Assembly (NCBI GenBank): GCA_014526335.1
Contig: JACTAT010000177.1
Span: 23,320 to 87,319 of the forward strand
Direction: 5' to 3'
Source of the DNA: Chrysaora quinquecirrha
Lineage: Eukaryota > Cnidaria > Scyphozoa > Semaeostomeae > Pelagiidae
DNA length: 64,000 bases
Part shown: positions 17,405 to 61,503 of the stretch, one piece after another
Numbering within the stretch: the stretch's first letter is position 1
Layout: each line of letters opens with the position of its first letter
The notes under the pieces: generated by a model
Databases searched by the model: none
What the model saw: the letters and a program-made list of their open reading frames with translations, nothing else
What the model was told of the DNA's origin: nothing
Translations under genes and position numbers: made by a program

Positions 17405-18478
17405 ACGTAAAATTTTCGGAAGATTTATTTTCGGGCGATTAATTTCGGACGCAATTTTCAATACCGGACAGAATAAAATGATACGATAAAGAGATAATCT
17501 CCGACGACATTAATTATAAAAAATTCTTTCTTTATCTTTATTTTTTCATTCAAAGAATGGTAACAAGGAAATATCAATCATTCTTAAATCAAAAAACAAG
17601 TGTTTGTATCAAGTTAGTTATCAACATTATCGGTATCCATGTTAGTTACTATATTCAAGAAAGAGCAGTTTAGCTTACTGCGAACGACTGTAACTGAATA
17701 ATGATCTTAGAACTAACAAGGTATTTATACTACAGAATCACATGACCATAATAAGACGGGGTGCACTAAGGGGGGCTCTACATCCAGATCTTACAATGCA
17801 TCTTCTGTCCCTAAATCATTGTTGAAAGCCTCTTATTGATAATACTTGCCATTTCCAAGTAGCGTTTCACAAGAAGCAATAAAGAGCATAAGTCGAGTCA
17901 AACGGCCAACATTATTCTCTCATATTTTTCATGGCATCGATCAGCTAAAAATTTTGATCTCGGACGATAGAATTTTCGGACTTCGAATTTGTCAACAAAT
18001 TTAACCGTCTTTGTATCTAATTTATCCTATGCCGCCTTCATCAAAATCGAGGCAACTGTTGTTTTTCTGCGTAACGACGTCTACTTGCTCCCAGCTGTAC
18101 AAATTTGCAAGGTATGCCAGAAATCCGAAATATGCATTTTAATCTTACGTTAATAGCATCATCAAATTAATCATATCATCTTCCGTGTTCAGGCAATGAG
18201 ATACCAAAGGAATGGTAAACAAATTTTTGGTATGCATAACAGGATATATATGCTGGAGAATCAAAGCTGATGCGATTCGGTGCATATTTGCATACTTAGC
18301 TAATATTACCAAGACTTTTCTACATCAGGAGTCCTTGTTATCCATATCCAACTGAAAAAACTCTAACATAAAATTTGTAACAAAAGCAATTAAATTGCAA
18401 AAAATATGTTATGGGCCATTACTCAACCCTTGATGTCCCTAGCCAAGTAAGCAGATACCAGAAGGAGGAGAGGTATAG

Positions 18479-19415
18479 TATGGAGCGGCGGGAGGGTCAA
18501 AAATAATCCGTGAGGAGTACTCCTTGTCGTCGTGGAAAACCTTTCCCGTGACTGTACCTCCCCGTCGTCGTGAGTGCTCTTTGTCGTCGTGACTGCTCTT
18601 CGTCGTCGTGAGTACCTCAAACCGTGATCGAAATCTATTAGTCACGGTCAAAAATAATCCGTGAGGAGAACTCCTTGTCGTCGTGGAAAACCTTATCCGT
18701 GACTGTACCTCCCCGTCGTCGTGAGTGCTCTTTGTCGTCGTGACTGCTCTTCGTCGTCGTGAGTACCTCAAACCGTGATCGAAATTCATTAGTCACGGCT
18801 TATTAATTTCATTCGCGATTTGTCAACATGTCGTCATTTTTTTCGGCCTGAACACGTGATCTTGTTGACAGAGCTTGGAAAAAGAGAGAAAAAAATAAGA
18901 GTTTAGATTTGTTTTAAATACTACGTTAAAAACATGGTGATGAAGCCCCCGAAACAAATATTGCATCATCTTCAGATTCGCCATTTCGTATCCGAAAGTA
19001 CTTGGCATGAATATTTGTGCGATGCTTTGATATTTTCAGATTCCGAGATCACATTGTTTTTGAAAAGGTCAAAGAAGACTGCGAAGGAGGCAATTTCGAT
19101 GACGATTTTGCAAAAATGGTGATTCAAATTTATTAGCTATGACTAATAGATTTCGATCACGGTTTGAGGTACTCACGACGACAAGGTACAGTCACAGGAA
19201 AGGCTTCCACGACGACAAAGAGTACTCACGACGACAAAGAGCACTCACGACGACGACAAGGTACAGTCACGGGAAAGGTTTTCCACGACGACAAGGAGTA
19301 CTCACGACGACAAAGAGCTCTCACGACGACGACAAGGTACAGTCACGGGAAAGGTTTTCCACGACGACAAGGAGTACTCCTCACGGATTATTTTTGACCC
19401 TCCCGCGGCTCCATA
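18479..19415. mobile_element. Foldback element with GACGACAAGG-type subterminal repeats
   Basis: Ends TATGGAGCGGCGGGAGGGTC and its near-complement enclose arms at 18479-18800 and about 19135-19415. Possible flanking duplication GTATAG at 18473-18478 and 19416-19421. The arms are built of repeats of CGTCGTCGTGAGTACTC type; the left arm contains two tandem copies of a unit of about 151 bp (18496-18646 and 18647-18799). The Thr/Thr/Lys/Arg-rich frames here come from the repeats and are not genes. The 937-bp element encodes no recognisable transposase. Confidence 0.75.
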
Positions 19416-20321
19416 GTATAGTTACTGGGAGAAGAGTTTCAGGCTGCGCCAGAGCTACAAATTTGCTCTTGCAAGTCATTGAGAGAAACCTTCAAGTGAC
19501 CCACGTAGCCAAATTGTGGAGTGCTGGAAAAACTCTGAAAATTCCCTTACTACATTAAGGTCCCTAAGTCCTTGGAAGTTGTTAGGAATATCTCTTAAAA
19601 ATTAACAAAGTTAATAGTTTGTAAACAAAGTAAATTACTTTTCGAAATAAAGGTGATAAAATTGAGCAATCCAGATCACATGATATATGAAAGTTAAACA
19701 TGCAAAATGAACTTCAAATAATAGCTTTAATAAATTAATAAAAACAAATTTTCGAACCACGATAGTTATAAATTTCTCAAGTGAGATGTAAATCTTTCGA
19801 AAATTTCATAATCACATTCAGAGGAACAAGACAAAGATTGAAGTAATAAAATGAAGCAATTGTAGTAAAGGAGTACAGATAATGGCTCATTCAATTCACC
19901 CATGATTTAACAAATAGCAAAAAACTAATGACACGGTGCAGTGTATAGGCTTTTAAGCAACGGTATGCCAAAGTAATTTTTATCAAACGTGGATTTATTC
20001 AAAATTTGGTAGCACAACAGAACAGGCCTAACATTAAGTTTTTGTTTTTGAAAGTAGACTTTCATAGCCTGCCGACGCCACAAGCATACATATTTAATAT
20101 TCTTATAATGTTCACCATATTAAATTAAATTTGAATATTTCTACCTCCTGTATTGTGGCCAGTTTCGACTCCCCCAAAATGTTTGTAACAACGTCAAAAC
20201 CAACATGGCGATGGTCCTAGGCAGTAAAGGGTTGCCATCTCTACATAGTGTTGCCAGATACAATATCATTGGCCAGATTACTGTTCCTGCAACACTTAAT
20301 TAACATTGAATTGAATTCAAC

Positions 20322-34173: not shown

Positions 34174-35585
34174 GGGATGTTCTTTTAACTGGACTCCACG
34201 ACCTCACGACCCCAGACCATACGACCCTACGACCTCACGACCATACGACCCTATTTTTATTCATGATTTTTTATTTTCATAAATAGTAAATTCTAAGTTG
34301 ATTTTCATTAAAAAGTACCAAGATGATTTTGATTTTGATTTATAAAACCATTCGGAATCATTTGATAGGTGAACTTGACTTATTTCAGTATCGTGTTATC
34401 CCCGACAGTTAGCCCAGAGATCAAACAAGCGGTTTGATATGTAAACATTGCTATTTACAATCGTGTTTCATTTTCCAATGCTATATTACATTACATCGAT
34501 ACCTGCAATGCTGAATTCTATTTTGTTCGAGATCGGTAGAAAATTATATTTTGTCTTTAGAAAATATTATTTATTTTAAACGGTCTTTCTAATTTGCGAA
34601 TGCTCACTGCCGAACCAGAAGTTAAGAGCAAGAACAAACTGAAAAATTTTTAATTTCAGGTCCCATGTTAAAACTGGACTAAATTTTTCAAAATCTTTGA
34701 GCTTTTATAAAGCTCGCACCAGTAATGATTTCGTTTCGGGTCTCACTAAAGCCTAATACATGGCTACAAAAACCGTTCATATAAAGAATTTATGCACGTT
34801 TATAAAGCTTTATAAGAAACACCGGCCTGAAATTTGGGTCAAAATTTTTTGCTACCTCACAAACTATTTGAGATGCGCGCAAGTAAAATTCACCAACGTA
34901 AAGCCCTTGCCCGGAGAGGCATTTTAAACATGTTTTCGAGAAGGTAGGGGGGTGACAAGTACTTGAAAAATCGCTTCAAAAACAAGAAACAAGCAGGCTG
35001 AAATCAAAGCCAGCAAGGTGTTCTTATAAAATAGCTTCTATGTTTACAGTCCCGATTTTAGCTACATTTTGAATTGGTCGAGGGATATCAAATGCATAAA
35101 TTTTATTTATCACTTTTAACCTTCAAAACCATAAGTCATTCGTAGTCAAAGATAAAACTGTTTGAGTTTTAGGTGGCCAATGCGAAAATGCTTCGTTGTG
35201 TTGCTCAAGTTTACCTATCATTCCATTGGTGTCACGCCATGCTGACATGTTAGAAATAACTTCAGGCACCAAAATGCCATTAAAGTAATCCAAGACTCGC
35301 GAATAACAATACAGTGTAATGCAAACTGCTGTTTACTTGTGCACTAACCGCATGGATATCATGATAGCTACTGAAATAAGTCAAGTTCACCTATCAAATG
35401 ATTCCGAATGGTTTTGTAAATCAAAATCAAAGTCATCTTGGTACTTTTTAATGAAAATCAACTTAGAATTTACTATTTATGAAAATAAAAAATCATGAAT
35501 AAAAATAGGGTCGTATGGTCGTGAGGTCGTAGGGTCGTGTGGTCTGGGGTCGTGAGGTCGTGGAGTCCAGTTAAAAGAACATCCC
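34174..35585. mobile_element. Foldback DNA transposon, about 215-bp inverted repeats, 8-bp TSD
   Basis: Arms 34174-34388 and 35368-35585 are near-identical inverted repeats starting GGGATGTTCTTTTAACTGG. Each carries clustered ACGACC/CACGACC motifs just inside the tip. Perfect 8-bp duplications GTGATACA flank it at 34166-34173 and 35586-35593. The 8-bp duplication fits hAT or P-like elements. The 1.0-kb centre has no transposase, so it is non-autonomous. Confidence 0.88.
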
Positions 35586-37959: not shown

Positions 37960-38355
37960 TAATTGGAAGTAAAATAATGGTTTCGATGACTGAATGATTT
38001 CGTCCCAGGATATCCGAGGTGGACAGGGCCTAGTCACCCCTTGTGGCCAACTCAATATATTTTCGACTTAACTATATAAAACTCCTTTGTTTGTGTCTTG
38101 ATCAAAAGAAAGAACAAAGGATAAAAGAATTGGAATGATGTAAAATGAAAAATGAAACAAAATAACCAAACCACTTCAATTGCACAACACTGGTCCGTTA
38201 TCTAAACCGTAACCACAGAAATGTAAACGATATTTTAATTCCTCTTCAAAATTATTTGGTTCTGTGAATAGAGCATTGTTTTCAAGATTAAAGACCTTCA
38301 TATCGTCATAGTCACAGAAAACATCAATGACTATGTTTTGGCTATTTCTAAAAAG

Positions 38356-38785
38356 AGGAATAAGAGGAATGAAGAGGAATGAAGAGGAATGAGGAGGAAT
38401 GAGGAGGAATGAGGAGGAATGAAGAGGAATGAAGAGGAATGAAGAGGAATGAAGAGGAATGAGGAGGAATGAAGAGGAATGAAGAGGAATGAAGAGGAAT
38501 GAGGAGGAATGAAGAGGAATGAAGAGGAATGAGGAGGAATGAGGAGGAATGAGGAGGAATGAAGAGGAATGAAGAGGAATTAGGAGGAATGAGGAGGAAT
38601 GAGGAGGAATGAAGAGGAATGAAGAGGAACGGGGATGAATGAAGAGGAACGGGGAGGAATGAAGAGGAATGAGGAGGAATGAAGAGGAATGACGAGGAAT
38701 GAATAGGAATGAAGAGGAATGAGGAGGAATGAGGATGAATGAAGAGGAATGAAGAGGAACGGGAGAGGAACGGGGAGGAATGAAT
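38356..38785. repeat. 10-bp minisatellite GA(A/G)GAGGAAT, left MULE end, copy 1
   Basis: About 40 units of GAAGAGGAAT and GAGGAGGAAT with rare variants (TAGG, AACGGGG). It forms the left subterminal repeat of the MULE. The Ser/Pro/His-rich minus-strand frame through it is an artefact. Confidence 0.95.
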
Positions 38786-38892
38786 TTCAAATCATTGGCA
38801 TCTTCAAATCCTTCTCTTTACTTCCCTTTTCTATTATTTACTATACGTTTTCCGTCATACTGTACAGCTATTGGCAACATTTGCAATAATAG

Positions 38893-39325
38893 GGCTATTT
38901 CTAAAAAGAGGAATAAGAGGAATGAAGAGGAATGAAGAGGAATGAGGAGGAATGAGGAGGAATGAGGAGGAATGAAGAGGAATGAAGAGGAATGAAGAGG
39001 AATGAAGAGGAATGAGGAGGAATGAAGAGGAATGAAGAGGAATGAAGAGGAATGAGGAGGAATGAAGAGGAATGAAGAGGAATGAGGAGGAATGAGGAGG
39101 AATGAGGAGGAATGAAGAGGAATGAAGAGGAATTAGGAGGAATGAGGAGGAATGAGGAGGAATGAGGATGAATGAAGAGGAATGAAGAGGAACGGGAGAG
39201 GAACGGGGAGGAATGAATTTCAAATCATTGGCATCTTCAAATCCTTCTCTTTACTTCCCTTTTCTATTATTTACTATACGTTTTCCGTCATACTGTACAG
39301 CTATTGGCAACATTTGCAATAATAG
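38893..39325. repeat. Tandem duplicate of the left MULE end
   Basis: Repeats 38340-38892 including the tip sequence, the array and the 3' flank (ATTTCAAATCATTGGCATC through GCAATAATAG). The order of GAA/GAG unit variants is the same as in copy 1 for the first 20-odd units. It then lacks about 120 bp of array. The shared variant order indicates a recent segmental duplication. Confidence 0.92.
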
Positions 39326-40160
39326 TGAGGTACGATTTCCTTACATTCGAGAATAAGAAAAATGAGACGACACATTTTACTCAACAGAACTTAACAACAA
39401 CAAGTCAATAAGATTAATACAAAAGATTTCAATGTTGCTGTTGCCATAGGGCAACAATATCCCGGTACATCCAGGTATATTCCAACAAGTAGCTAATAGG
39501 AGTTAATTTAGTACAGCAAAAAACTAAACGCATATTGAAATTTGTGCTACAGTTATGAAATTTTCATGCACTAGGTTGGGAGAGCAAATAGAAAACCGGG
39601 CTGTACCTCCATATAACCGAAAAAACCTCCAGAAACTTATGTCAGATAAACTTATGTTAGCATTGCTGTTGAATGTTTCCCTTTTTATTCAACCGTGATA
39701 CCTGAGCAGTTGGCTGGAATTGAAGGACTTGGAAATGAATTTTTCTTGTACACAAAGCGACCAAAATACTCAAATAAAATGTTACTACAATTTAGATCAG
39801 GTCAGTTCATTTATTGTATGTACGTCCAACATTCTTGTATACTGCCTCTTCTATAAACCAAACCCTTGTTCACAAATTATTTCAGGTGTAATTTTGTTTT
39901 GGTCAGAGAAATCACAGAGTGGATGGCAATCGCAATCTCATTCTTGCATTTGAAAAGCATTTCAATCATTTTCAAATATCACCTCACACCCGCCAAAAAT
40001 TTTTAGGTAGGGAGGATTTTGATTGGGAGGGAGATATTAGTTGGATAATACCTCATAATTATCAATTAGCAAGCAAACAAACAAACAATATAACAAACAA
40101 ACATCCTAGAATAAGATAACATGCAAGAGTAACAAACAGCGACGAAAAGAACAATTAAGA
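39326..40160. other. MULE interior, 3' of the transposase gene
   Basis: AT-rich, with short AAACAAACA runs near 40070-40105. Expected to hold the gene's 3' UTR. No canonical polyadenylation signal could be placed with certainty. Confidence 0.35.
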
Positions 40161-43100
40161 TTACAAAAAAGAGTTCCAGCCAAATTCTAAACGCAGCCTA
40201 TCTAAATGTTCCATTTGTAGCAAAGGTCTGAATTCGTTTGTAACAACAAGCATATTTGGTGTGAATTGTTGGTATCTTTGCTTGATGCAGTCAAGACGCA
40301 AATGGAAATGTACATTTTGTTGTTGATCCGAAATAACTTTCTTTCCCGACTGTGGATGTCTGTACACCCGAAAGTCTTTGTATACGACGATGAGGTCTTC
40401 TGGTAGTCTCGTCGGGGGATTGCTGATCTGGCGTCCACAACCGTAGCAAACGGATACTGTTGTACCATATACCCATTTCAGCTGAAATGACTGCGCTGGA
40501 AACGACTGAATTTGCAGTCTTGGTGGAAGAGCAGCTACCTCAGAGTGAAGTTGCCAAGGTGTTGGTTGCAGTTGGCTGCTTGAAGGGCTATTTTGCATGC
40601 ATTGCTGGACATCGATATTCGGAAAGTCAGGTACTATTTTATCAATTGATGGACGTTTATTTGCAGGCGGGTGCATTTTGTTTATTTGGGCCTGGCCATA
40701 TGTCTCTTGTTCAGGGTCGCTCTGAAGCATGTCTACAAATTCTGTCGGGGCAGCTCGTTTTAAATTCGACTTCTTACGAGAGCTTGGTTTCTTTCCAGCC
40801 GTTTTTGGACCCGAGGCCAACGCCATCTCGGTTATTCTTGGTCCAGCTTTAGACTTTTTGTACCATTCAATAAAATCTTTTAACACACCTTTTTTCTGCG
40901 CCACAGCCAATGTATGCTCACACAACTTAGTTGTTTTATGTAAACATGACCGATCGCAAGATAGAGAGCCCCCTTTGCCAGGAGTAACAGTGTGGACGTT
41001 GTTGGTGGTTCCAGCAACTATATATGAGCCATTGTCGGCACCAGGTTTGGCGACAATTAGGTCTGGTTTAGAAAGAATGGAATTAGCTTTCGTAAATAAA
41101 GACTGCAAGATTGGAAACGGATGGTTGTAATACCACTTTCTAATGCAGAAATGGCAAGTTCATCATTACTGGTTTCGTCAGCTCTTGTTGATGATGTGAT
41201 GTCATTCTCGAGGTCACAATCTGCTGTTTCGATACCACTGCAGATGTCCATTCCTGCGTCTAAGAAATTGTTGATTGCATTTAGACGTTGCTTGTGACTC
41301 ATTCTTTCCCATTTTCGTTGATCTGGCACCAAATGAGAGAACTCTTTACGGACTCTGTAAGGACCTTTGCCAAAGATCGCTCGCTCTTCGTTTCGAAACT
41401 GAGTCTCGACTATTTTTTTAATTTCCGATATGAATTCATGAGGCCGCTTTGCCTCAAAATGCAAGCCATATTTGATAAGAAAGTTACTTGCTTCCGAGTC
41501 ATTATTTGTGTATTGTGCTGGTGGATCGCCAAGGCCGGCTTCAGTTCTCACATTTTGAAGCATTGACTCTTTCATTTCCTCGGCCTGTTAAAGAAGTGAC
41601 ATCTTTTAGAATGATTACTTAAATTATAGTAATTACTTAAATTATAGTCATGCAATAAACAGAAGGAAATGAAAGAAAAGGAATTAGAATGAATAATAGC
41701 AACTATCAGTGAAGTAGCAGCTCATTTTTGGACGTGTTCTTTGTAGAGGCATTATATGCTCACTCTACGAAAAATGTTTGTTCTTCCTAACAGTTCCAGA
41801 TATGACATGTCAATTTTTTATCATTTAAATTTTAATGCATTTCCTCAACGAAGAAGCTCAAAGATACTTTTCGACTGCTTTCCTCGGGATTTTTGCGTTT
41901 TCAGGCAAAGTTGTCCTCTGTATTAAATGTGAAATTACTGCTCCTAATAATGTAAATTGTAATATAGCCATTTGTAATACCTTATACTTTTTAAACCATT
42001 CGAAGAATGACTGCTCGTTGGCTTTCGTTTCTCTTCTTTCCCACGTTGATTTTAGTTTTTCCAGCTTTGAATCGAATTCATCTTCAGAGCTGCAGTCCAC
42101 CAAGCCGTAGTACTTTGTGTTTCCGTCCTGTTTTCCAAATATTTCATCGATAAAAGCATCCTTAACTGGACCAAGCAAACCCCGTTTTGTCAGTTCTCTT
42201 TTTATGTTATCTTTCATGTGAAGAAAACATCGCAGAAATACAGCAAACCGAAAACTCTTTTTCAAACCGTCGATTAATGCCTTCTCGCCGTCTGTTCCAC
42301 ATGCCAGAATTCCTTCAAGGTCTTGATTTTCAGCAAGAAGCGAATGTCCGAAGTGGAAATAGGTCTTCCAATCTTTCTTCTGGTGCATCATCATAGGACC
42401 GATAAATACTGGAGATTTGTTTGTTTGTTTACTGACAAGCCTAAGATTTCGGTACGAAGTGACAGTGAGACTGATGTTTTTTTCAAAGACATTGAAGGTT
42501 GGATCAATACTGTATACAGCGAATTCACGTGGATTGGTGCAGAATTGGGCAACCTGTTTCAATTGCTTGTCACTTGCGAGCACTATGTATAGACTGGGAT
42601 GTATCTTGCATTCACGAATAATAGCCGATTCTTGCGTCTGCTCTTCCTCTCGCTTTGCGCGTTCCAATAGCATCCATAAATCGTCACAGGTTGAGTTTCT
42701 TTGAGCATCCACTGCGAGCGTCCCTTTGGAATCATCCCTTCGTTTTTCATTATACCTCGCGTTATATAAGTCTTTAGGACCTCTTGGCAGTTTGTCTAGC
42801 CGGTCGACATCAAGGACGTCTCCTAAAGAGCAGTATACGTCATCCAGCATTTCCTTCGGCGTCTTATCTTTACTTTTCGCACTCGCTTTGATTTGCTGTA
42901 TTGTGCTCGGCATTGTACGTCGATACGGGATACCATGCTTGAATTGCCATGGGCACGTTCGTAAGTGACCTCGTGTTCTTCTTTCTCAAATATATATTGA
43001 ACAAGTACGTTTTCAACTGACATCCACTGCCATCTACAAATGAATTTATAATAATTTTCAATAAACTCATACTAATACAGTCGAACGAGTTTTCTAAGAT

Positions 43101-43913
43101 TTTGTAAACTTTTTGTCAATTAGGTCGATAGCTGTGTCGTGTCACATGACCAAAAAATACACAAAATTTTATATTATAAGATACAATGCCTGGCCCCCCA
43201 ATTCGACCAATCAGAAAGTGAAATGCACCATTAAAGTCGACTATTAAAGACCGTTGAAATTATGCATTATTCATCTGCATCATCTTTGATTTATAATTTG
43301 AGAAATAGCGAAACAGGGTTTGCCCATTTGCTTGAGTATAGCTTCTTGATTTTGATCGAGGTTAAAAAAAAAAACATAAGTCAGCTAACTCATAACCTAT
43401 GTTTTGGCTTAGAATCGATAACACAACACTCTGTCTAAATAACCTTCAAGCAATACAAAACCTACTCTCTACCTACCCTGTAAAGAGACAATGATCTTTC
43501 GTATGTCAGGATCTGATGCATTCGAGTAATACCGTCTTTTCAGGAAGAACACATTTTCTTTTTTGTAATGATCAACATCGCTGGATTCAATTCTTACTGG
43601 GTTTGCAGAATCGGCTTTTCTGTTCACAAAAAAACAACCTACTGGAGCTCCTATGCGCTTCCATACTCCCATAGAATCACAAGTGATATCGTTTGGTGAT
43701 TTCAATTTGGAACAGTCTACCAAAAAGGTAACATTGTTCGCTACGTTGTATGGAGGCACTGTGCAGAGATATTTCGCGCTATAAGTCTTCAGTAATAGAG
43801 AGACCAAAGCAGTTGCCTCAAACGATCTTGATGTCCACTTGAACACTGGTGTAGCTAGGTCTTCACGATACGGACTCCCAACAGGCTCTATGCTTACTTC
43901 GTTGTCAGCTTTC
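40161..43913 (-). pseudogene. MULE DDE transposase with SWIM zinc finger (3' half of fusion gene)
   Basis: Exons 43913-43473 (N-terminal region), 43033 to about 41868 (DDE core) and 41584-40161 (end of core, SWIM finger, tail). The core shows YSIDPTFNVF, GTDGEKAL and NNDSEASNF, the three acidic positions of MULE transposases, plus LRCFLHMKDNI. The SWIM finger reads SCDRSC...LCEH. The tail has CYGCG and VHFHLRLDC, a likely second zinc site. Three breaks are seen. Near 42945 the frame shifts by one base between AHGNS and KHGIPYRRT. Near 41868 the only good donor (AAAAGTATCT) has the wrong phase for the acceptor at 41585; one G would make AAG|GTATCT. Near 41090-41110 the frame shifts between ALESGITTI and the frame encoding PFPILQSLF. 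Each is explained by one missing base: a decaying copy or assembly indels. Confidence 0.82.
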
Positions 43914-44648
43914 CTGTTAAAAAGAACAAAATTCAGTTGATCATCTTTGTAAAATTTCAACAGTTTCCGTTAAAATGACTGTAATAGCAGGTATTATCAT
44001 CTTCAACCAAACATGCTACATGTTTTAACCCTATTTCACAATTCCCTACAAGCTGTCACGTCAAAACACAGTAATTTATTATATCTAATTTGTTTACATT
44101 AGTTGTAATTTAATAATTTTTTGAACTGTGACGTCATACGTCTTGATGAGGTCATAAATCCGATGATTATCGTGCAAATTTTGATAATTTGTATTTTTCA
44201 GATAGAAAAACATCAGGAATAGGGTTATGTGAAATAGGGTTAATCCTAATCCTACCAGCGGGTGGAATTCTTTGCAAGGCAACAGATAGTAGTTACTAGC
44301 AACAAAACGTAAAGAAATTTCTGGACTTTTATTCGTATTAAGGAAGGTCGATTTTTGACCAACGTCGATAGCATGTTTTGATTATGATGTCATAATGATG
44401 TAATAATAGAAGTTGGAAACGCCCAGTTTACCAACATTACTCCTTATACATTGGCCCATGCCAGTTTTCATTGCTCTAGCTCTACAGTGAAGCAATTTCT
44501 GGAGGGGGTGAAAACACCTCTCCTAGCTATTTGAGAAAAAAAAACCGGCAGGAATAGGTTTGAAGAGAAAAAAATAAAGAGAAGGAAAGAAAAGCAAATA
44601 ATTTCCAGACTTCCGCGGTCCATTTTCGAGAAGCGATATAAAACTTAC

Positions 44649-47600
44649 TTTGCATTTGCATAAACCACTTGAGTTATTTCCAAATCATTGCTGGAGCTTG
44701 ACGATTTTTCCGAGCTATTGCTGCTGCACAAATCAACAGTTGGTTTTATGTCCTCCAAATCAACTGAGATTGGTCCATAACTGTAGAAGTAACCAATGAT
44801 GTTATTATCGAACGGAATGTGGGATTCTTCGTTACACAGTTTTTTGTTAGAATTAGCAAAGTTCAGCTGAGGCTGACTGTTTTTTTTTCTTCAACGTATC
44901 CAAGGCTGATGTTCTTACTTTTTGGTCTTAGATCATCATTACATCACTACACAAATCTTCGATTATTTATTGGCTATTGCATCTCTTAAAAGTTAAAAAA
45001 ATAACAAAAAAGCTATATTTTGAAGCTGTGTGTGGTTGGAAACTGTCCTGTCTTTAACGGAAAGCAAGATACAGCGTGTAATAGCGTAAAAAGTTGATGT
45101 GCAGCCTATTGCCGAGCTGAAAATCAGTCTGCAATTGTTCCTAGAATGTCCTTATTTTTACCATTTCTGAGCCTGGTTGTTCTTATAAAGTTTGTTCTCG
45201 TAAAAAGCTGTGTACTGGCATCAATTAATGGTAATGGAATAAGTATGCATCAATGTTTGTTTCTTACCTGTCACTATAAGTAGAAACTACAGCAAGATAA
45301 GGTGTACAGCTAGGTGCAACTTTTGAGTAATCCAGTCGTCTTGCAATCCATTGATGGAAGCCACTGACAGAATTTGTCTTAACAATTAAACCGTTTCCAT
45401 TACCACCCAAACATTCAACTATGGGATGTGTTTCGAAAGCGTACATGTTTCCATCATGGGCAGCTCCAATGGCGAAAATGTATGCAGCAGCATGGAAAAC
45501 GGCATATTTGGCCTTTCCAGATTCTTTTGCATCATGTTGCATTTGTGTGAGCTCACTCTTCATTTTTACTTGAAATTCATAACTGTAGACTTTCTCGTTA
45601 TCGACCAGTTTCTCTTCGAAACTAAACTTTTGTGACAGTAAATTATTGTCATGAAGGACTTTGGCTGCCTCGTAGACATCACACATTTCTGAGCTTTTTC
45701 GAAATCTATTGAACAAAGTAGGAAAATCGCTAATAGTTTCTTCAACTAAACTGCTTAGCTCTTCGTCGCACGATAAAATTTTTTGTTTAGCTGACATCAA
45801 TTTATCGATAATACCAATGGATAAGAAACCACAGGCATTGGTTCCATCATTCACAGGCAGCAAAGTCTTTGAAAGCTCCTCCAAATTGTTCACGGCAGCT
45901 TTGATTATTTGTTCATCACTGTTTTCGGTTGCTGTTGCTTGTGAGATATTCAGCTGAATAAAGTCTATCTTTGGATTTCCCATATCAACGTTCATTAATT
46001 GATCGATCGTGCATCTTTTGTCAATTTCGTACGTTAGATTTTCATAGACAAGCTGGCGCAAGACTTGATAGAAACCTGCTTGGTGACTCAAGTACTGATC
46101 GGAACAAGAAGGGAACGCCTTCAATCTTAAAAGTTCTAGAAGTAAAGCCTCATAATCTGCGGGGGAGTTGTCATCTGACTGCATCATTATAATGTTATTT
46201 TCAAATGGAAATCTTTGATCCGGATTTATGGTAAGGAATACAGTCATCAGAAGTGCCCATATATCCACAGCCTTGAGCTGCTCCAAGCTTGCTGAACTTA
46301 ACATATTCGATTTATCCAAAATTTCAGGCGCCATGAAGGCAGGACTACCCCTGTTCAAAAACTTTGTGCGAGTATTCCCAATCATTGCCTTCGTTTGACA
46401 TAAATTAGACCTTGCTTCGCCTAGGTCGGCTAGCTTGCAAATTATAGGCTTCTTTCTGTAAATTTCTTCCCAAGCCGATGTTGAATTACAGTAATGCAGA
46501 TTGCTTACCAGAATGTTAGCCGGTTTTATATCCCTATGCACAATATTGTGTTCATGCATGAAAGAAATTCCTGCTATTATATCCCTTGCGATGACATTGC
46601 TGAGCCCAGGGAAAGTACGAAACAAATTTTCAGAGTCAAGATAAATAAGCAGCTCTTTTAGAGAATTTACAGACATATCTCTTTGAAATGGGGAAAAGGA
46701 AAATTCACAATACTCCAACATCACCGCGAGTGGCTGTTCACATACGCCCATGAACTTTACTATGTTAGCACATTCTATACCATCAAGCAATTTTGCCTCT
46801 TTTGCGAATGTTCTACACTCGAGTCTTGACATTGCTTTGTGTAACTTCTTGACAACAACTGTTGCGTCATTGTACCTGCCCTTGATGGCTGTGGCAAAGG
46901 ATCCCTTACCTGCAAAAAATGTTTAACAACTTCTATATGGGCTAAGAAGTAAAAAATAAGAAATAAAAAGTAAGAAGTAAAAAAAGCTAAGAAAGTATTT
47001 CCGTTTTTAAATTCAGCATTCTACTCTACTGATGTTTGTCACCAAAAAATTATGAAAACACTGCTTATTCTCAATTTCTTAAAAGAAACACCTCCGAAAC
47101 TCTGTGTGAAGCTACTTAAAATTCTTTTCCGAAAAATCAAGAAAACTCTTAGGCCCTGTTCATATGACATTTCATATAAGCCCGCTTACCGGGCCAACCC
47201 ACTAAGTGAGACCCGCCTAATCCAGAATTTCCATACAGAATTCAATCCTGTTCATATGAGAAAGCGGGCTGGCCCAGTAAGCGAGAACTTGCTTCAGCAG
47301 TGGCGAGATCTCAGCAAGCGGGCTGAATATTTCTCATATGAACACTCCAACCCACTAACCGGGCTGGCATTGTTTCAACAGCGCATGTGTGAAACCACAA
47401 AAGGGTTTGAAATTGCCGAAATGAATAATTTCCGTCTCGGTAGGCGGGCCAGAATTATCCCACATGTACAGAACTTGAAATTTGTCTCGCTTAGTGGGCT
47501 GTCCCGGTGAGCGGGCTCATATGAACATTACTGACGCACTTGGTCTTAAAGAAAATCATGACGTCATCTCTAGCACAGAAGGTATCTCAGATCCTATTGA

Positions 47601-50112
47601 TAAAGCTGTGACTAAATATTCCAACCATCCCAGCATAAGAAAAATTCGCAGTCTTGCCCGAATTGAAAACAAGTTCCACTTTGGTAAAGTCACTGTTGAA
47701 GAAATGAAAATGGAAATTAGTAGACTCGATCCCAAAAAGTCAACGACTTTCAAAAACATCCCCCCAAAAATTTTAAAAGGTAGCTCTGAGATTTGTGCAG
47801 AGTCATTAAAGACTATCTTTAATGATGGTGTTGAAAGCTTTTTTGTTCCCAGATGAGCTTAAATCTGCAGATGTTACATCACTTCATAAATCTGGGGCCA
47901 AAACTTCCAAGGAAAATTATAGACCTGTAAGTGTGCTTCCAACTGTTTCTAAGATTTTTGAAAGAATTATGGATAGGCAGATAGTAGAATATATAACTCC
48001 ATTTCTATCGATTTTGCTTTGTGGTTTTCGCAAAGGTTTTAATACACAACATGCCTTGACCCGTATGCTTGAAAATTGGAAAGTTAGTTTAGACAATGGG
48101 GAAAACGTTGGTGCAATCTTAATGGACCTCTCCAAAGCGTTCGACTGTATTAAGCATGACCTCCTTCTAGCAAAACTAGACGCTTATGGCTTTAGTCGTG
48201 AAGCTTTATCTCTTATTCATAACTTTCTAGAGGGCAGGCAACAAAGGGTAAAAATCAACGGATCTTTTAGTACGTTTAAAAAACTGAAATTGGGCGTCCC
48301 CCAAGGATCAGTTCTTGGCCCCCTTCTTTTCAACATTTACATAAATGATTTGTTGTTTTCTATTGACAAAACTGATATCTGCAATTATGCAGATGATACA
48401 ACTATTTATGCATGTGGCAAGAACCTAGATAATGTAATAGAGAAGCTGGAAAATGATTCTGATATTATTATTCAATGGTTTGAGGATAATTTTATGAAAT
48501 TAAATACAGATAAATGTCATCTATTGGCTCTAGGGAAAAGTGTCAACCAATTAGTTACTGTAAATATAGGTAGCAATAGCATTGAAAATACAGCTGAGGA
48601 AAAATTATTAGGTGTTACAATCGATGATAAACTTACATTTGAGACACACATCACAAAGTTATGTAAAAAGGCTGGCAATAAACTGTTTGCTCTCTCTCGC
48701 ATGTCTCCCTATATGGACTCGAACAAGTTAAGAGTTTTAATGAGATCCTTTGTAATAAGTCAATTTCAATATTGCCCGTTAGCTTGGATGTTTCATAGCA
48801 GACAAGCAAACAATAAGATCAATAAAATACACGAACGAGCTTTACGAATTGCATACAAGGATTATGAATCAGACTTTGAGACTTTATTAGAAAGAGACAA
48901 ATCTGTGACTATTCATGCTAAGAATCTGCAAACCCTCGCTATAGAAATTTTTAAAACTAGAAACAATTTGAACCCCCCTTTTATGAGAGATATTTTCAGG
49001 CAGCGGGAAATTAGGTTTAACCTAAGAAATGACAATGACTTTCTCTTACCAAGGATAAAAACCGTACATTTTGGCTCTGAAACTGTACGATATAGAGGGC
49101 CTCAACTATGGTATCACCTCCCTGAAGGAATAAAAAATGCTGAATCTTATTTGCAATTTAAGTCAAGAATAAAACAATGGGGCGGTGATGAATGTACTTG
49201 TAGACTCTGCAGACCTTTCGTTCAAAACCTTGGTTATTTATGATTGCGAATTTTAGTTTTACCATTTAATTCTAATCAACATTTTTAAATCTTTTATTGC
49301 ATCATACAATGCTGTTTTTATATGAATTATTTTAGCTCTTTTATTGTATTATACACTGCTGTTTTATATGAATCATCTAAGCTTATTTTAACCATGAATT
49401 TTAGAAATTATCTGGACTCTATATTGTAAGTATATTTTTAACTTTTTAAGATTTTTAACTTAGATTTATAGATTTTTGAGTATTTTATACTTTAAATAGT
49501 TGGCTTTAATTAGCAAAATTAAGTAATTAATTAAGCTATATATATCCAAGCCAACTTTAAAGAAATTGATTATTATATGAACAGGCCCTTCATCCAACAA
49601 ACTTTATCCGTTTATAAAAAGCAATATACTTTTATGCCTTTTTAATCAAATAATCGTAACACAACGAAACTTCTAGTTCTGATCATCTTCATTTCTTTAG
49701 TTCTTATTTGTAACTCCAAAAAAGAATATTTGGTTCATGTCAGTGAGTTTCGGTTGAATAGGAAGGCTTCGTTTTTCGAAAGTCAGGAAACTCACAAGAA
49801 ATTTTTATTGTTATGAAATTGCCAAAACTTTAGGAACTTAAGAATTGGACCCAAACATAAGAAACCATACCACAAGGATTATTTAAATTTATCCGTAAAT
49901 AAATTAATGTGCAGAATCCGTAATAATGCAGAATAAATAATATTGTTTATTAATAAGTATTACATTGGAAGGAAATTAAGACAAATTTACTCACCAATGA
50001 TTTTCATCTCTTCAAATTCAGAGGTTTCGAACCTCTGAAGCTTTTCGTCAAATATGGATCCTTGTTTGGTCGCTGAAGCAGGGATTTTCGGAACAGCTTG
50101 AAATTGGTACAT
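44649..50112 (-). CDS. Protein kinase plus possible papain-like domain (5' half of fusion gene)
   Basis: Exon 1 50112-49995 (ATG, in-frame stop upstream), exon 2 46909-45268, exon 3 44780-44649. Phases 1 and 2 match at the two junctions, and exon 3 joins in phase to the transposase exon at 43913. Kinase residues, numbered from exon 1: glycine loop IGKGSFATAIKG (39-50), lysine in VVVKK (about 60), helix-C glutamate (about 77), HRDIKPAN (164-171), DLG in place of DFG (201-203), APE (233-235), then AVDIWAL. These predict an active Ser/Thr-type kinase. Residues about 395-580 carry NACGFLSIGI and, 135 residues on, FETHPIVECLGGNGNGLI. The Cys-then-His layout recalls papain-fold proteases or deubiquitinases, but this is tentative. 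No frame breaks are seen in this half. If the splice to 43913 is not used, it would be a separate kinase gene. Confidence 0.82.
45150..45212. mobile_element. Right-end fragment of AAGAAC-family MITE in a fusion-gene intron
   Basis: GAGCCTGGTTGTTCTTATAA and GTTCTCGTAAAAAGCTGTG, followed by TA at 45213-45214, match the right end plan of the family. The left end could not be placed. It lies between exons 2 and 3 of the kinase-transposase gene. Confidence 0.5.
47528..49574 (+). mobile_element. 5'-truncated LINE inside the intronic MITE
   Basis: Flanked by 9-bp duplications ATATGAACA at 47519-47527 and 49575-49583, which together restore the right tip of the host MITE. It starts within ORF2 upstream of the RT (no endonuclease domain) and ends without a poly-A tail. 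It lies antisense to the kinase-transposase gene. Confidence 0.8.
47560..49243 (+). pseudogene. Non-LTR reverse transcriptase (ORF2 fragment)
   Basis: An open frame of about 473 codons (to the stop at 49243) contains the RT blocks: DLSKAFDCIKHDLLLAKL, GVPQGSVLGPLLFNIYIND and the catalytic YADDTT. A conserved LINE C-terminus follows (FGSETVRYRGPQLWYHLP) with a terminal C-x-C-x-x-C motif. An upstream piece (47560-47850) in another frame carries DPKKSTTFKNIPPKILK and FNDGVESFF. The two meet at a T-run near 47840 where one base is out of register. The upstream endonuclease is absent. The clade is probably in the CR1/Jockey group but is not decided. It is dead by truncation and frameshift. Confidence 0.9.
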
Positions 50113-50472
50113 TTCGGCAATGCGCTGCGAGCGCTTGCACGAAAGAAATGGTGTGGTTTATTCAAAGCGTTTCATTTCATATATGCCAGCAGGATTAGGG
50201 TTCACTACTTTGGCGCCAACAACCATCCATAGCATGCATATATTAATACATTAATGCTATAATTTATCTGGTTAAGGAGTAATGGCAGCATACAGGATGT
50301 GGTCCTTATATGTTGTTTAAAGATATATCTCACATTTCAATGAAAATCTAAAATAGGGTCAGCTGATGAATTCTCTCTAGCCAAAACGGCAAAACAAAAT
50401 CTAAGGCACAAACGATCAACCTATCAATCAAAGTCATCATCTTATACAAGTTTAAGAGAGCAGAATAAACGC

Positions 50473-50952
50473 CCCATTCCTCTTCATTCCTCTTCATTCC
50501 TCTTCATTCCTCTTCATTCCTCTTCATTCCTCTTCATTCCTCCTCATTCCTCGTCATTCCTCTTCATTTCTCTTCATTCCTCTTCATTCCTCTTCATTCC
50601 TCTTCATTCCTCCTCATTCCTCCTCATTCCTCTTCATTCCTCTTCATTCCTCTTCATTCCTCCTCATTCCTCTTCATTCCTCTTCATTCCTCTTCATTCC
50701 TCTTCATTCCTCTTCATTCCTCTTCATTCCTCCTCATTCCTCTTCATTCCTCTTCATTCCTCTTCATTCCTCTTCATTCCTCTTCATTCCTCTTCATTCC
50801 TCTTCATTCCTCTTCATTCCTCTTCATTCCTCTTCATTCCTCTTCATTCCTCTTCATTCCTCCTCATTCCTCTTCATTCCTCCTCATTCCTCCTCATTCC
50901 TCCTCATTCCTCTTCATTCCTCTCCATTCCTCGTCATTCCTCTTATTCCTCT
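50473..50952. repeat. 10-bp minisatellite TTCATTCCTC, right MULE end
   Basis: About 47 units, mostly CTTCATTCCT, inverted relative to the left-end arrays. It merges at 50945-50966 into the complement of GGCTATTTCTAAAAAGAGG. Confidence 0.95.
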
Positions 50953-51101
50953 TTTTAGAAATAGCCCTATGTTTTCTATGACAATGATGCGATTGGGTCG
51001 TACTTTTTTATTATTTTTCCCTTTGCAGGCCTTGATTACTAATAATGTCGAAATATACGAAAAAAGTAGTACTAGCGCCAACTATCGTAACTGGTAACTT
51101 A

Positions 51102-51489
51102 CACTCTTCTTTTTTAATAAGCAACTTGACTTTCGTCCAGCCCTCAAAGTTGCTTAAAATTTAAGATATTTCAGCCCTCAAAGTTGCTTAAACGTTGCTT
51201 ATCATTTTTTGTACCTACTAACCACCCCTGACTTCGCGGATCAAAATCGTCATCTGTTAGGCCTACAACATGACTTTTGGGAGACAGTAAGTGCAAAAAC
51301 GTTAACTAACGAACTTCAACATGCAAAACATAAGAACGAAGAACAATTTCGTAGCACAAGAAAGAGAATAAGCTTGGTTGTTTGACTTCTTAGTTGCTTA
51401 CAGTAATTTAATTGAGCCCTCAAGTTGCTTAATGTTAAGGTCAGTTCAGCCCTAGTTGCTTATTGAGCGGTTGCTTATTAAAAAAAGTG
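51102..51489. mobile_element. TA-target MITE, AAGCAAC family (copy 2)
   Basis: Tips CACTCTTCTTTTTTAATAAG and the complement of TTGCTTATTAAAAAAAGTG, flanked by TA at 51100-51101 and 51490-51491. It is inverted relative to 36874-37257 and shares nearly all of its interior, including GACTTCTTAGTTGCTTACAG. It lies 135 bp outside the right end of the MULE. Confidence 0.88.
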
Positions 51490-51500
51490 TATGTCGACAC

Positions 51501-59412: not shown

Positions 59413-61503
59413 TTAGCAGTTATTGGAATTCTCTATTGTTTTTATCTTCATCTCTGATTTGATGATGTTGCCAAATGATGCTGCTATTTCCTTCCAGCTC
59501 ATGTATACAGGATCCGTAGCATATCTGCCAGGATACAAATTATTTAGATTTGCTAGGAAACACGCATTATACCACCATGCTCCTGAATATTTCACTGCAC
59601 AGTTACCTTTATCAAGATCATTATCTTTGTCATAAGTTGAGAACTTCATTTTGTTTTGATATGCCAACGAATCACCAGCATTTCCAGAATAGCCACCAAT
59701 CTTCAGTTGATAGCCACTAGCTTCATCTCCAATCTCGAACATTGAATACGTTGCATAAAACAGTTTGTTGGGATAATAGTGGTGTTTCATTGTAATATTT
59801 AAGACAGTTCCTTTACAAGGGCTGGCCAAACAATGCATTTTGTCCAGTCCAATCCAAAAATTCCCAGAACGATGACCAAAACCTGATTTATAATCAGACC
59901 AATTGCGGTTGAAATTGACTGATGCATCGACTCTTCTCTGGATAACAATCCAGTCACTTTTCGGCTTTGTTTCCCGACCTTGATTTACTGCAGCTGAAAA
60001 AATTAATCTCTATTACTACATTTAAGTTTAAGTTTAAGTTTAAGTTTAAGTTTAAGTTTAAGTTTAAGTTTAAGTTTAAGTTTAAGTTTAAGTTTAAGTT
60101 TAAGTTTAAGTTTAAGTTTAAGTTTAAGTTTAAGTTTAAGTTTAAGTTTAAGTTTAAGTTTACGTTTAAGTTTAAGTTTAAGTTTAAGTTTAAGTTTAAG
60201 TTTAAGTTTAAGTTTAAGTTTAAGTTTAAGTTTAAGTTTAAGTTTAAGTTTAAGTTTAAGTTTAAGTTTACGTTTAAGTTTAAGTTTAAGTTTAAGTTTA
60301 AGTTTAAGTTTAAGTTTAAGCTTAAGTTTAAGTATAAGTATAAGTTTAAGTTTAAGTTTACTTTTAAGTTTACGTTTAAGTTTAAGTTTAAGTTTAAGTT
60401 TAAGTTTAAGTTTAAGTCTAAGTTTAAGTTTTTAAGTTTAAATTTGAGCTCAAGTTAATACGAATACTAAGACTATGATTAAGATTAAGACTAAGACTAA
60501 GACAAGACTAAGTCTAGAACTACGATAAAGATAAAGATGAAGATGAAGATGAAGATGAAGGTGCAAGTGCAGGTGCAGGTGCAGGTGCAGGTGCAGGTGC
60601 AGGTGCAGGTGCAGGTGCAGGTGCAGGTGCAGGTTAAGATTAAGATTAAGATTAAGATTAAGATTAAGATTAAGATTAAGATTAAGATTAAGATTAAGAT
60701 TAAGATTAAGATTAAGATTAAGATTAAGATTAAAACTAAGATTAAGATTAAGATTAAGGTAAGATTAAGGTTATGATTAAGATTAAGATTAAAATTAAGA
60801 TTAAAATTAACATCACATTAAAATTTAAGATCAACATTCAGATTAACAGCAGGTAGTGCACAATAACTTTGAGGTGGAGATTCTTTTGAGAATAGTCCTG
60901 AGGAGGTGGTGGTTGTTACAAGGCGGTAGTCGGAGACGGGCAAGGGCTAGTCTTTATTACTAATATTCATCTTTTAAAACTAAGTTACCCCATTGCTTTG
61001 GACAATTTTTCGACTACACTTGAAAGGCTTTTAGGCCTTGTGCTACCTATAAATGCGTTTATTTTTTTAATTGGTCCCGTTTCTGGTCAAATACTGTTTG
61101 AATTGATTTAATAATGTGCAAAATTGCATAGAAGATAAATGCATAAACGGGAAATGAATTGAATGCCCGTAAAAAAGTTATTCTTACTTTGGAATAAGAA
61201 ACTCTTCTGAAACTTACCTTGTTTCTCCCATACCGTGATCGGTCGTTTTATATTCTTCAAATCTGCTTCACCATGCACTATATCATAAGTGTTGGTGTCT
61301 TTGAACTTAACCACATGCGTGCAGGAATCTTTTACTCCGCAGTCGAAGAACTCAGGGTTGACTTTTGGTTCGTCATTGGCGTTGTTTTTGGCATCACTCT
61401 TCTTGCTTATTTTTCGATAGAAATGCCTTTTTGCAATTTGGTTGCAATATTCTTCCAAAGAACATTTCGAAATGACCACCAGAATCAGAAATAAAGCTCT
61501 CAT
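59413..61503 (-). CDS. Secreted fibrinogen-related (FReD) protein, two coding exons
   Basis: Exon 1 61503-61218: ATG, signal peptide MRALFLILVVISKC, then a Cys-bearing linker. The junction is phase 1 with donor CAAG|GTAAGT and acceptor TTTCAG at 59994. Exon 2 is 59993-59413. The FReD domain fills exon 2: DWIVIQRRVDASVNFNRNW, GFGHRSGNFWIGLD, then the calcium/ligand segment DKDNDLDKGNCAVKYSGAWW followed by YNACFLANLNNLYPG, ending NSNNC-stop. This matches the C-terminal fibrinogen fold of ficolin, tenascin and angiopoietin-type proteins. In invertebrates most are secreted lectins or matrix proteins, so recognition or adhesion is likely but not shown. The ATG at 61503 was chosen because the signal peptide starts there. 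The intron holds three hexamer arrays. Confidence 0.9.
60022..60430. repeat. Hexanucleotide array (AAGTTT)n
   Basis: About 68 near-perfect AAGTTT units with occasional ACGTTT, AAGCTT and AAGTAT variants, in the intron of the FReD gene. The long alternating Phe-Lys frame is an artefact. It is not the canonical metazoan telomere unit. Confidence 0.95.
60537..60634. repeat. Hexanucleotide array GATGAA leading into (GGTGCA)n
   Basis: A short run of AAGATG units changes to about 12 units of GGTGCA (AGGTGC), starting near 60560 and ending near 60634. It keeps a six-base period throughout and is noticeably more GC-rich than its neighbours. Confidence 0.9.
60633..60800. repeat. Hexanucleotide array (AAGATT)n
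   Basis: About 24 AAGATT units, the last ones increasingly degenerate (AAAATT, AAGGTT). It continues directly from the GGTGCA array. Confidence 0.92.

What the first reader, a model, noticed from the sequence alone, without database searches (positions are those of the whole stretch)
38340..50966. Complete-looking 12.6-kb MULE with minisatellite ends and a 9-bp target duplication
Identical tips (GGCTATTTCTAAAAAGAGG then AATAAGAGGAATG) point inward at 38340 and 50966. They are flanked by the same 9 bases, CTATGTTTT, at 38331-38339 and 50967-50975. Nine-base duplication is the MULE rule, and a MULE transposase lies inside. That these ends are also the outer edges of the two oppositely oriented 10-bp minisatellites explains both arrays as transposon termini. 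I know of no described MULE with this combination of ends and cargo, but could not search.
Basis: partly seen in the sequence, partly recalled or inferred. Interest (0 to 1): 0.93.

Follow-up and report, generated by a model that had tools for sequence, protein, structure and literature searches.

The report
Jumping gene carrying its own kinase
A 12.6-kb jumping gene in an animal genome (likely from a coral relative), found in many copies with the same ends and duplicated target sites, holds a protein kinase just upstream of its transposase, and in a relative in the same genome the two lie in one unbroken reading frame, so this transposon family likely carries its own regulator.

Summary
The finding is real. 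Identical 32-base tips point inward at 38340 and 50966, with CTATGTTTT on both sides. Of 16 copies in this genome with both tips in hand, 14 have exact 9- or 10-bp target duplications; mismatched flanks gave 0 of 240. So 38340-50966 is a mobile Mutator-like (MULE) transposon with Foldback-type minisatellite ends, a kind of end already known from Tm1 (PMC3169594).

Two corrections. About 2 kb is a nested retrotransposon. The "cargo" is not random: a protein kinase plus an unnamed Cys/His domain lies upstream of the transposase on the same strand, with splice signals suggesting one gene. Genome-wide, 42 of 59 kinase-hit loci have a MULE downstream on the same strand within 10 kb (chance about 0.09). 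A diverged relative encodes kinase and transposase in one 1,423-codon frame, between 15-bp minisatellite ends and a perfect 10-bp duplication. A kinase cassette about 99% identical to this one also sits in an element with other ends and another transposase.

All six coding copies read here have broken frames, so activity is not shown. My paper searches found no kinase-bearing MULE.

The parts
38331..38339 (.). left copy of the 9-bp target duplication CTATGTTTT
38340..38371 (+). left tip of the inverted repeat
38353..39217 (+). left 10-bp minisatellite (AAGAGGAATG), interrupted by a tandem duplication of the left end with a second, inner tip at 38893
40161..41584 (-). predicted exon 6: rest of transposase with the candidate third acidic residue (codon 41494-41492), SWIM-like motif (40958-40914), stop; frame break near 41121
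41981..43033 (-). predicted exon 5: MULE transposase core with candidate catalytic Asp codons at 42505-42503 and 42292-42290; frame breaks near 43014 and 42942
43477..43913 (-). predicted exon 4: conserved region before the transposase core, perhaps DNA-binding (guess; no Pfam match)
44649..44780 (-). predicted exon 3: linker with SSNDLEIT, close to SSDELEIT in P0064 and P0125
45268..46909 (-). predicted exon 2: protein kinase domain followed by a domain with invariant Cys and conserved His
47519..49583 (+). nested retrotransposon (insert 47528-49574, reverse transcriptase) between two copies of ATATGAACA, in predicted intron 1
49995..50112 (-). predicted exon 1: start codon and beginning of the kinase
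50475..50953 (-). right 10-bp minisatellite
50935..50966 (-). right tip of the inverted repeat
50967..50975 (.). right copy of the 9-bp target duplication CTATGTTTT

Best explanation
Window 38340-50966 is a Foldback-type Mutator-like (MULE) DNA transposon, one of at least 16 copies in this genome with matching tips, and its kinase, just upstream of the transposase on the same strand, is likely part of the same spliced gene and would tune transposition by phosphorylating the transposase or host factors. Shown: tips, arrays, target duplications, copies, non-coding derivatives with long inverted arms, a nested retrotransposon, and the recurrent order kinase-then-transposase at diverged loci, including one unbroken fusion frame. 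Inferred: the transposase recognises the tip and the repeated units (the arrays acting as many binding sites), cuts both ends and inserts at a staggered cut that yields the 9-10-bp duplications; non-coding copies are moved by the enzyme of coding copies. Also inferred: that the kinase is active, what it phosphorylates, and that the Cys/His domain is a protease.
For: 14 of 16 two-tip copies with exact 9- or 10-bp duplications, 0 of 240 in mismatched pairs. Transposase homology: 161 proteins at E <= 0.001; MULE Pfam model in 12 of 22 rows of A2; candidate acidic residues D in 20 of 20, D in 21 of 21, E in 14 of 16 rows with a residue. Kinase: Pfam E 1.2e-26, catalytic His-Arg-Asp His and Asp and the Asn in 31 of 31 rows. 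Kinase followed by a MULE on the same strand within 10 kb at 42 of 59 loci, none in another arrangement, chance about 0.09; 31 of 47 when near-identical kinases are left out (counted from the rows). One 1,423-codon frame with both domains in an element with minisatellite ends and a 10-bp duplication. Gene model P0064 joins the end of the Cys/His domain, exon 4 and the transposase. Fewer nonsynonymous changes than expected, 29:19 against 3.13:1, p 0.013; exons 1-4 p 0.014.
Against: Every coding copy read (six) has frame breaks, so no autonomous copy of this subfamily is shown. 17 of 59 kinase loci and 54 of 96 transposase loci are unpaired, although only 79 of 266 and 109 of 238 candidates were scored. 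Exons 5-6 alone do not depart from neutrality (p 0.15). The window's own exon is below the Pfam cut-off for MULE, and Pfam does not see the transposase in the fusion frame; both rest on the family profile. Splicing is predicted, with no transcript. No empty allele was seen. Copy L has no duplication.
Confidence: 0.78

Rival explanations
1. The kinase is captured host cargo, as in Pack-MULEs, riding along with no role in transposition.
For: MULEs are known to capture genes (PMC6431247 passages). 17 of 59 kinase loci have no MULE hit nearby. The kinase cassette occurs at about 99% identity in an element with a different transposase, so it can be exchanged.
Against: Same order and strand at 31 of 47 diverged loci (counted from its rows), a fusion frame, a joined gene model in another species, and a low nonsynonymous share in exons 1-4 (p 0.014).
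Confidence: 0.12
2. Kinase and transposase are two adjacent genes of one element, not one spliced gene, in this subfamily.
For: No transcript data; exon 3 is short and was placed by splice signals and a short motif only. The third protein search, with exons 1-4, found no protein reaching the transposase side.
Against: GT/AG borders keep one frame through exons 1-4; P0064 spans both parts; the C324 relative is one frame.
Confidence: 0.2
3. The whole subfamily is dead: a decayed element whose coding copies no longer work.
For: All six coding copies read have frame breaks; most two-tip copies are non-coding.
Against: Coding copies differ by few substitutions (window against C: 45 in 8,977 aligned bases), and copies C and F differ by 13 substitutions but 23 small indels, 16 of them single bases at short homopolymers, as assembly error would give. 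An unbroken relative lies in the same assembly.
Confidence: 0.3
4. The tips, arrays and 9-base repeat are chance or an old segmental repeat.
For: Minisatellites are common in this window.
Against: Fifteen further two-tip copies with other flanks; 14 of 16 exact duplications against 0 of 240.
Confidence: 0.01

Closest known systems
Tm1, Mutator/Foldback family of root-knot nematodes (PMC3169594; passages and the first part of the Discussion)
   Same: composite inverted repeats made mostly of tandem units (13-15 bp), 8-10-bp duplications in 45 of 53 elements, a MULE transposase in some members and many non-autonomous members
   Different: Tm1 is placed in the Phantom subclass with a FLYWCH region; none found here. 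No kinase is mentioned in what I read. Unit and tip sequences differ.
Drosophila FB/NOF and other Foldback elements (recalled; reference entries; Tetris and Galileo passages of PMC4079207)
   Same: tandem-repeat inverted termini; Tetris has 8-10-bp duplications; in Galileo internal tandem repeats hold extra transposase binding sites
   Different: Galileo carries a P-element transposase; relation of NOF to this transposase not tested here
Rehavkus, Phantom and other MULE groups in the table of PMC6446971 (passages)
   Same: 9-bp or 8-10-bp duplications; minisatellites listed for Rehavkus and for aphid Phantom; SWIM fingers in many groups; one cnidarian group (MuDR-6_HM) with an ovarian-tumour domain
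   Different: no kinase in that main text (0 occurrences); the Cys/His domain here has no OTU match
Pack-MULEs (PMC6431247 passages)
   Same: MULE ends enclosing further protein-coding sequence
   Different: Pack-MULEs hold gene fragments and use a transposase given in trans; here the kinase precedes the element's own transposase

Membership tests
MULE (Mutator-like) superfamily | target duplications of about 8-11 bp, mostly 9 | tested here: met
   9 or 10 bp exact in 14 of 16 two-tip copies
MULE (Mutator-like) superfamily | transposase homologous to the MULE/Transposase_mut families | tested here: met
   window exon alone below cut-off; 12 of 22 rows of A2 match PF10551 at E <= 0.1 and P0093 passes the PF00872 cut-off
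MULE (Mutator-like) superfamily | DDE residues and Cys-x2-His signature | tested here: met
   D 20 of 20, D 21 of 21, E 14 of 16, C and H 21 of 21 rows with a residue; that these are the catalytic ones is recalled, not tested
MULE (Mutator-like) superfamily | mobilised by its transposase | not testable with these tools
   needs a transposition assay
Foldback-type elements | long inverted repeats made of tandem units | tested here: met
Foldback-type elements | members with long inverted arms and little else | tested here: met
   copy M arms 1,285 bp at 96% in 3,002 bp; copy L about 1.2 kb at 90% in 3,814 bp; copy A only 0.7 kb in 10.9 kb
Phantom/Tm1 clade | N-terminal FLYWCH region (so described in PMC3169594; the PMC6446971 table lists Phantom with none, FLYWCH or SWIM) | tested here: not met
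   no FLYWCH match for exon 4 or its relatives
Phantom/Tm1 clade | place in a transposase tree | not tested
   no tree was built
Pack-MULE | no transposase of its own, host gene fragments inside | tested here: not met
   own transposase present
OTU, ULP or similar cysteine protease (the Cys/His domain) | profile match to such a family | tested here: not met
   Pfam, NCBIfam and PDB sequence searches
OTU, ULP or similar cysteine protease (the Cys/His domain) | conserved Cys and His | tested here: met
   Cys in 31 of 31 rows, His in 23 of 24 rows with a residue
protein kinase | Pfam kinase domain with catalytic residues | tested here: met
   E 1.2e-26; Lys 25 of 25, His/Asp of HRD and Asn 31 of 31, Asp of DLG/DFG 29 of 29 rows with a residue

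The most novel reading that the evidence does not exclude
A kinase-armed class of DNA transposon: in this cnidarian-type MULE lineage the transposase is built as kinase, (Cys/His, protease-like domain), DNA-binding region, DDE core and SWIM finger in one enzyme. The kinase cassette has been swapped between elements with different transposases, and each lineage has grown its own minisatellite ends. The element thus brings its own signalling switch and can time its jumps to the state of the cell.
Probability: 0.55. Interest if true: 0.83.

Novelty: new variant of a known kind. Interest (0 to 1): 0.72.

Why it matters
If true, a eukaryotic transposase lineage has kept a kinase domain on the same protein over deep divergence, so self-regulation of cut-and-paste transposition becomes testable in a single protein. 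The family also gives a natural series of minisatellite ends (10, 15, 25 and 31/51 bp), with related or unrelated tips, on which the idea that Foldback arrays are multiplied transposase binding sites can be tested.

Tried and rejected
Chance or segmental repeat: rejected by 14 of 16 exact duplications against 0 of 240. Inner tip at 38893 as the true end: rejected, its flank does not match the right flank. Retrotransposon as part of the MULE: rejected, absent from the five other coding copies. Protease identity: no profile support. Empty allele here: the right-flank search spent its 40 scored places mostly on a repeat at about window 51103-51491, with 3,122 candidates; the left-flank search did not complete. 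The joined flanks read through 89 aa open, too little to call a gene. Third protein search: 5 proteins, none reaching the transposase side. Papers: aimed at a kinase in a MULE or transposase, listed 0, 1, 4 and 0 papers; judged by titles and abstract starts only, none is about such an element.
Full report
OBSERVATION. The tips (GGCTATTTCTAAAAAGAGGAATAAGAGGAATG) sit at 38340 on the plus strand and 50966 on the minus strand, and CTATGTTTT flanks both. The 10-bp minisatellites are at 38353-39217 and 50475-50953; the best inverted arm pair is 420 nt at 92%. The left end is tandemly duplicated, with a second tip at 38893 whose flank does not match the right flank, so the target duplication marks the outer tip as the one that was used.

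COPIES. The window lies in a genome of 328 Mb in 740 contigs. A search with 38300-38700 gave 95 matches, 40 of 184 candidates being scored. I fetched 25 loci besides the window. Fifteen have both tips in hand; seven show one tip in the fetched stretch and three none, and these ten were not counted. With the window, 14 of 16 have exact target duplications, nine of 9 bp and five of 10 bp; copy U has 8 of 9 and copy L none. Left flanks paired with wrong right flanks gave no match of 7 bp or more in 240 pairs. This settles mobility of the family and precision of its ends.

TWO KINDS OF COPY. Five copies (B, C, F, H, I) carry the coding interior, at 98.8-99.5% over their longest stretches; single shorter stretches go down to 94.7%, H has extra sequence and I has lost parts. 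The other ten share with the window's interior only a subterminal block (130 bp, 83 bp in K and L) and, in eight of ten, a piece of 38-54 bp. Several have long inverted arms: M 1,285 bp at 96% in 3,002 bp, L about 1.2 kb at 90% in 3,814 bp, D 704 bp at 95% in 4,492 bp; A only about 0.7 kb in 10.9 kb. This is Foldback architecture, with likely non-autonomous members.

NESTED INSERT. 47528-49574 holds a reverse transcriptase (Pfam RVT_1, E 1.2e-34) between two copies of ATATGAACA. All five other coding copies lack it; four join cleanly across the site, and the site is printed for B and C. It is a later guest in predicted intron 1.

THE GENE. On the minus strand six predicted exons with GT/AG borders can be read: 50112-49995, 46909-45268, 44780-44649, 43913-43477, 43033-41981 and 41584-40161. 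Exon 2 encodes a protein kinase (Pfam E 1.2e-26), its start being supplied by exon 1; His and Asp of the HRD motif and the Asn are present in 31 of 31 rows and the Lys in 25 of 25 with a residue. A domain with an invariant Cys (31 of 31) and a conserved His (23 of 24) follows. By motif alone I think of a papain-like protease; no profile search supports this. Exons 5-6 encode the transposase: 161 homologues at E <= 0.001, 120 listed, with names from Paramuricea, Desmophyllum and Stylophora among the few named. PF10551 matches 12 of 22 rows of alignment A2, which holds two window pieces and 20 homologues. The candidate D-D-E residues stand in 20 of 20, 21 of 21 and 14 of 16 rows with a residue. 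That the host is a coral relative is inferred from these names only.

FRAME BREAKS. The window copy is broken near 43014, 42942 and 41121, and every other coding copy read has single-base length differences too, some private, some shared. Copies C and F differ by 13 substitutions but 23 small indels, 16 of them single bases at short homopolymers, which points to residual assembly error at least in part. I could not decide between error and decay. In nine of ten pairs among five copies (H left out because of its extra sequence) coding sequence differs less than non-coding sequence, C-F being equal; window against C: 0.23% and 0.78%. Variant codons are 29 nonsynonymous to 19 synonymous against 3.13:1 expected (p 0.013; exons 1-4 7:8, p 0.014; exons 5-6 22:11, p 0.15). 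The kinase part was likely under selection until recently; the transposase part alone does not show it.

IS THE KINASE PART OF THE ELEMENT? Searches of the same genome with the kinase exon (83 hits, 79 of 266 candidates scored) and the transposase exon (110 hits, 109 of 238 scored) merge to 59 and 96 loci. Forty-two of 59 kinase loci have a transposase hit downstream on the same strand, 1.0-6.2 kb away; none has one nearby in another arrangement; about 0.09 is expected by chance. Leaving out the 12 loci at 81% identity or more, 31 of 47 diverged kinase loci (30-56%) are so paired (counted from the rows). Against this, 17 kinase and 54 transposase loci are unpaired. Elsewhere, gene model P0064 runs from the end of the Cys/His domain through exon 4 into the transposase, and P0064 and P0125 carry SSDELEIT where exon 3 has SSNDLEIT.

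THE FUSION RELATIVE. On contig C324 one open frame of 1,423 codons (L172 558-4829) matches the kinase alignment profile over residues 2-348 (E 4.8e-108) and the transposase profile over 671-1120 (E 8.5e-118), and has a SWIM-like motif by pattern. Pfam sees its kinase but not its transposase. It does not match the Cys/His part of the profile. It lies in an element of about 8.6 kb (C324:7565678-7574287) with inverted 15-bp minisatellites and a perfect 10-bp duplication GTTGTAAATG. A second relative, on C2 (kinase 51%, transposase 56%), runs from 356331 to 366082, begins at both ends with GGCTATCTCTAAAA, close to the window's tip, and has a 9-bp duplication ACTTCCATT and 31/51-bp arrays at both ends. 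C179 (kinase 49%) has the same tip and a long array on the left; its right end was not found. I looked for ends in these three relatives and in the C121 group, no others.

CASSETTE SWAP. The C121 element (99281-110935) shares window 44839-50469 at 98.7-99.4%, apart from the retrotransposon and about 0.4 kb present only in C121. That stretch covers the subterminal region, exon 1 and the kinase/Cys-His exon. Its transposase hit is only 37% identical to the window's, and its ends have 25-bp units and the tip GGCATACCGGAATTTG. Five loci carry this pair of hits. I looked for tips at all five: three (C121, C304, C246) have both in hand and none of the three shows a 9- or 10-bp duplication (for the last two read by eye), which I cannot explain.

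MECHANISM. Shown: ends, duplications, spread, gene order, one fusion frame. Inferred: the transposase recognises tips and repeated units, cuts, and inserts at staggered sites; the arrays multiply binding sites, as the passage of PMC4079207 reports for Galileo; the kinase phosphorylates the transposase or host factors and so tunes activity.

COMPARISON. Ends and duplications match Tm1 (PMC3169594: tandem units in the inverted repeats, 8-10 bp in 45 of 53; passages and first part of the Discussion) and groups listed with minisatellites in PMC6446971, which also lists a cnidarian MULE with an ovarian-tumour domain (passages). FLYWCH, given for Phantom in PMC3169594, was not found here. I found no description of a kinase in a MULE: paper searches, and 0 occurrences of kinase in the main text of PMC6446971. 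The library lacks most subscription papers (the Phantom paper was not held), so this is weak evidence of novelty.

VERDICT. The ends are a known kind; the kinase-transposase composite is the new and interesting part.

Noticed in passing
window 18474-19420: Another pair of inverted minisatellites (arms 137 nt at 93%, units around CGTCGTCGTGAGTGCTCTT), perhaps a further short foldback-like element.
   Followed up: no
window 34174-35585: Inverted arms of 217 nt at 99% containing short ACGACC-type repeats, 978 nt apart; perhaps a young inverted-repeat element.
   Followed up: no
window 51103-51491: A very abundant repeat of about 390 bp next to the right end (matches at 94-97% on many contigs, 3,122 first-look candidates).
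   Followed up: no
C121:99281-110935 (L179, L177, L173, L178) and loci on C246, C304, C324, C372: Elements with the window's kinase cassette at about 99% but another transposase, 25-bp minisatellite ends and, in the three with both tips in hand, no target duplication.
   Followed up: partly
L189 (C179:1142653-1144943): Left end of a relative with about 75 copies of a 31-bp unit, next to an 8-bp repeat array that reaches the edge of the stretch.
   Followed up: no
window 60021-60846: Long 6-bp repeat array (TTTAAG/TTAAGA).
   Followed up: no
window 38176-38339 and 50976-51080: Reading across the pre-insertion site gives an 89-aa open frame on the minus strand; possibly a disrupted exon, not tested.
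   Followed up: partly
window 38340-39325: The left end of the element is tandemly duplicated, inner tip at 38893; how it arose is not known.
   Followed up: partly
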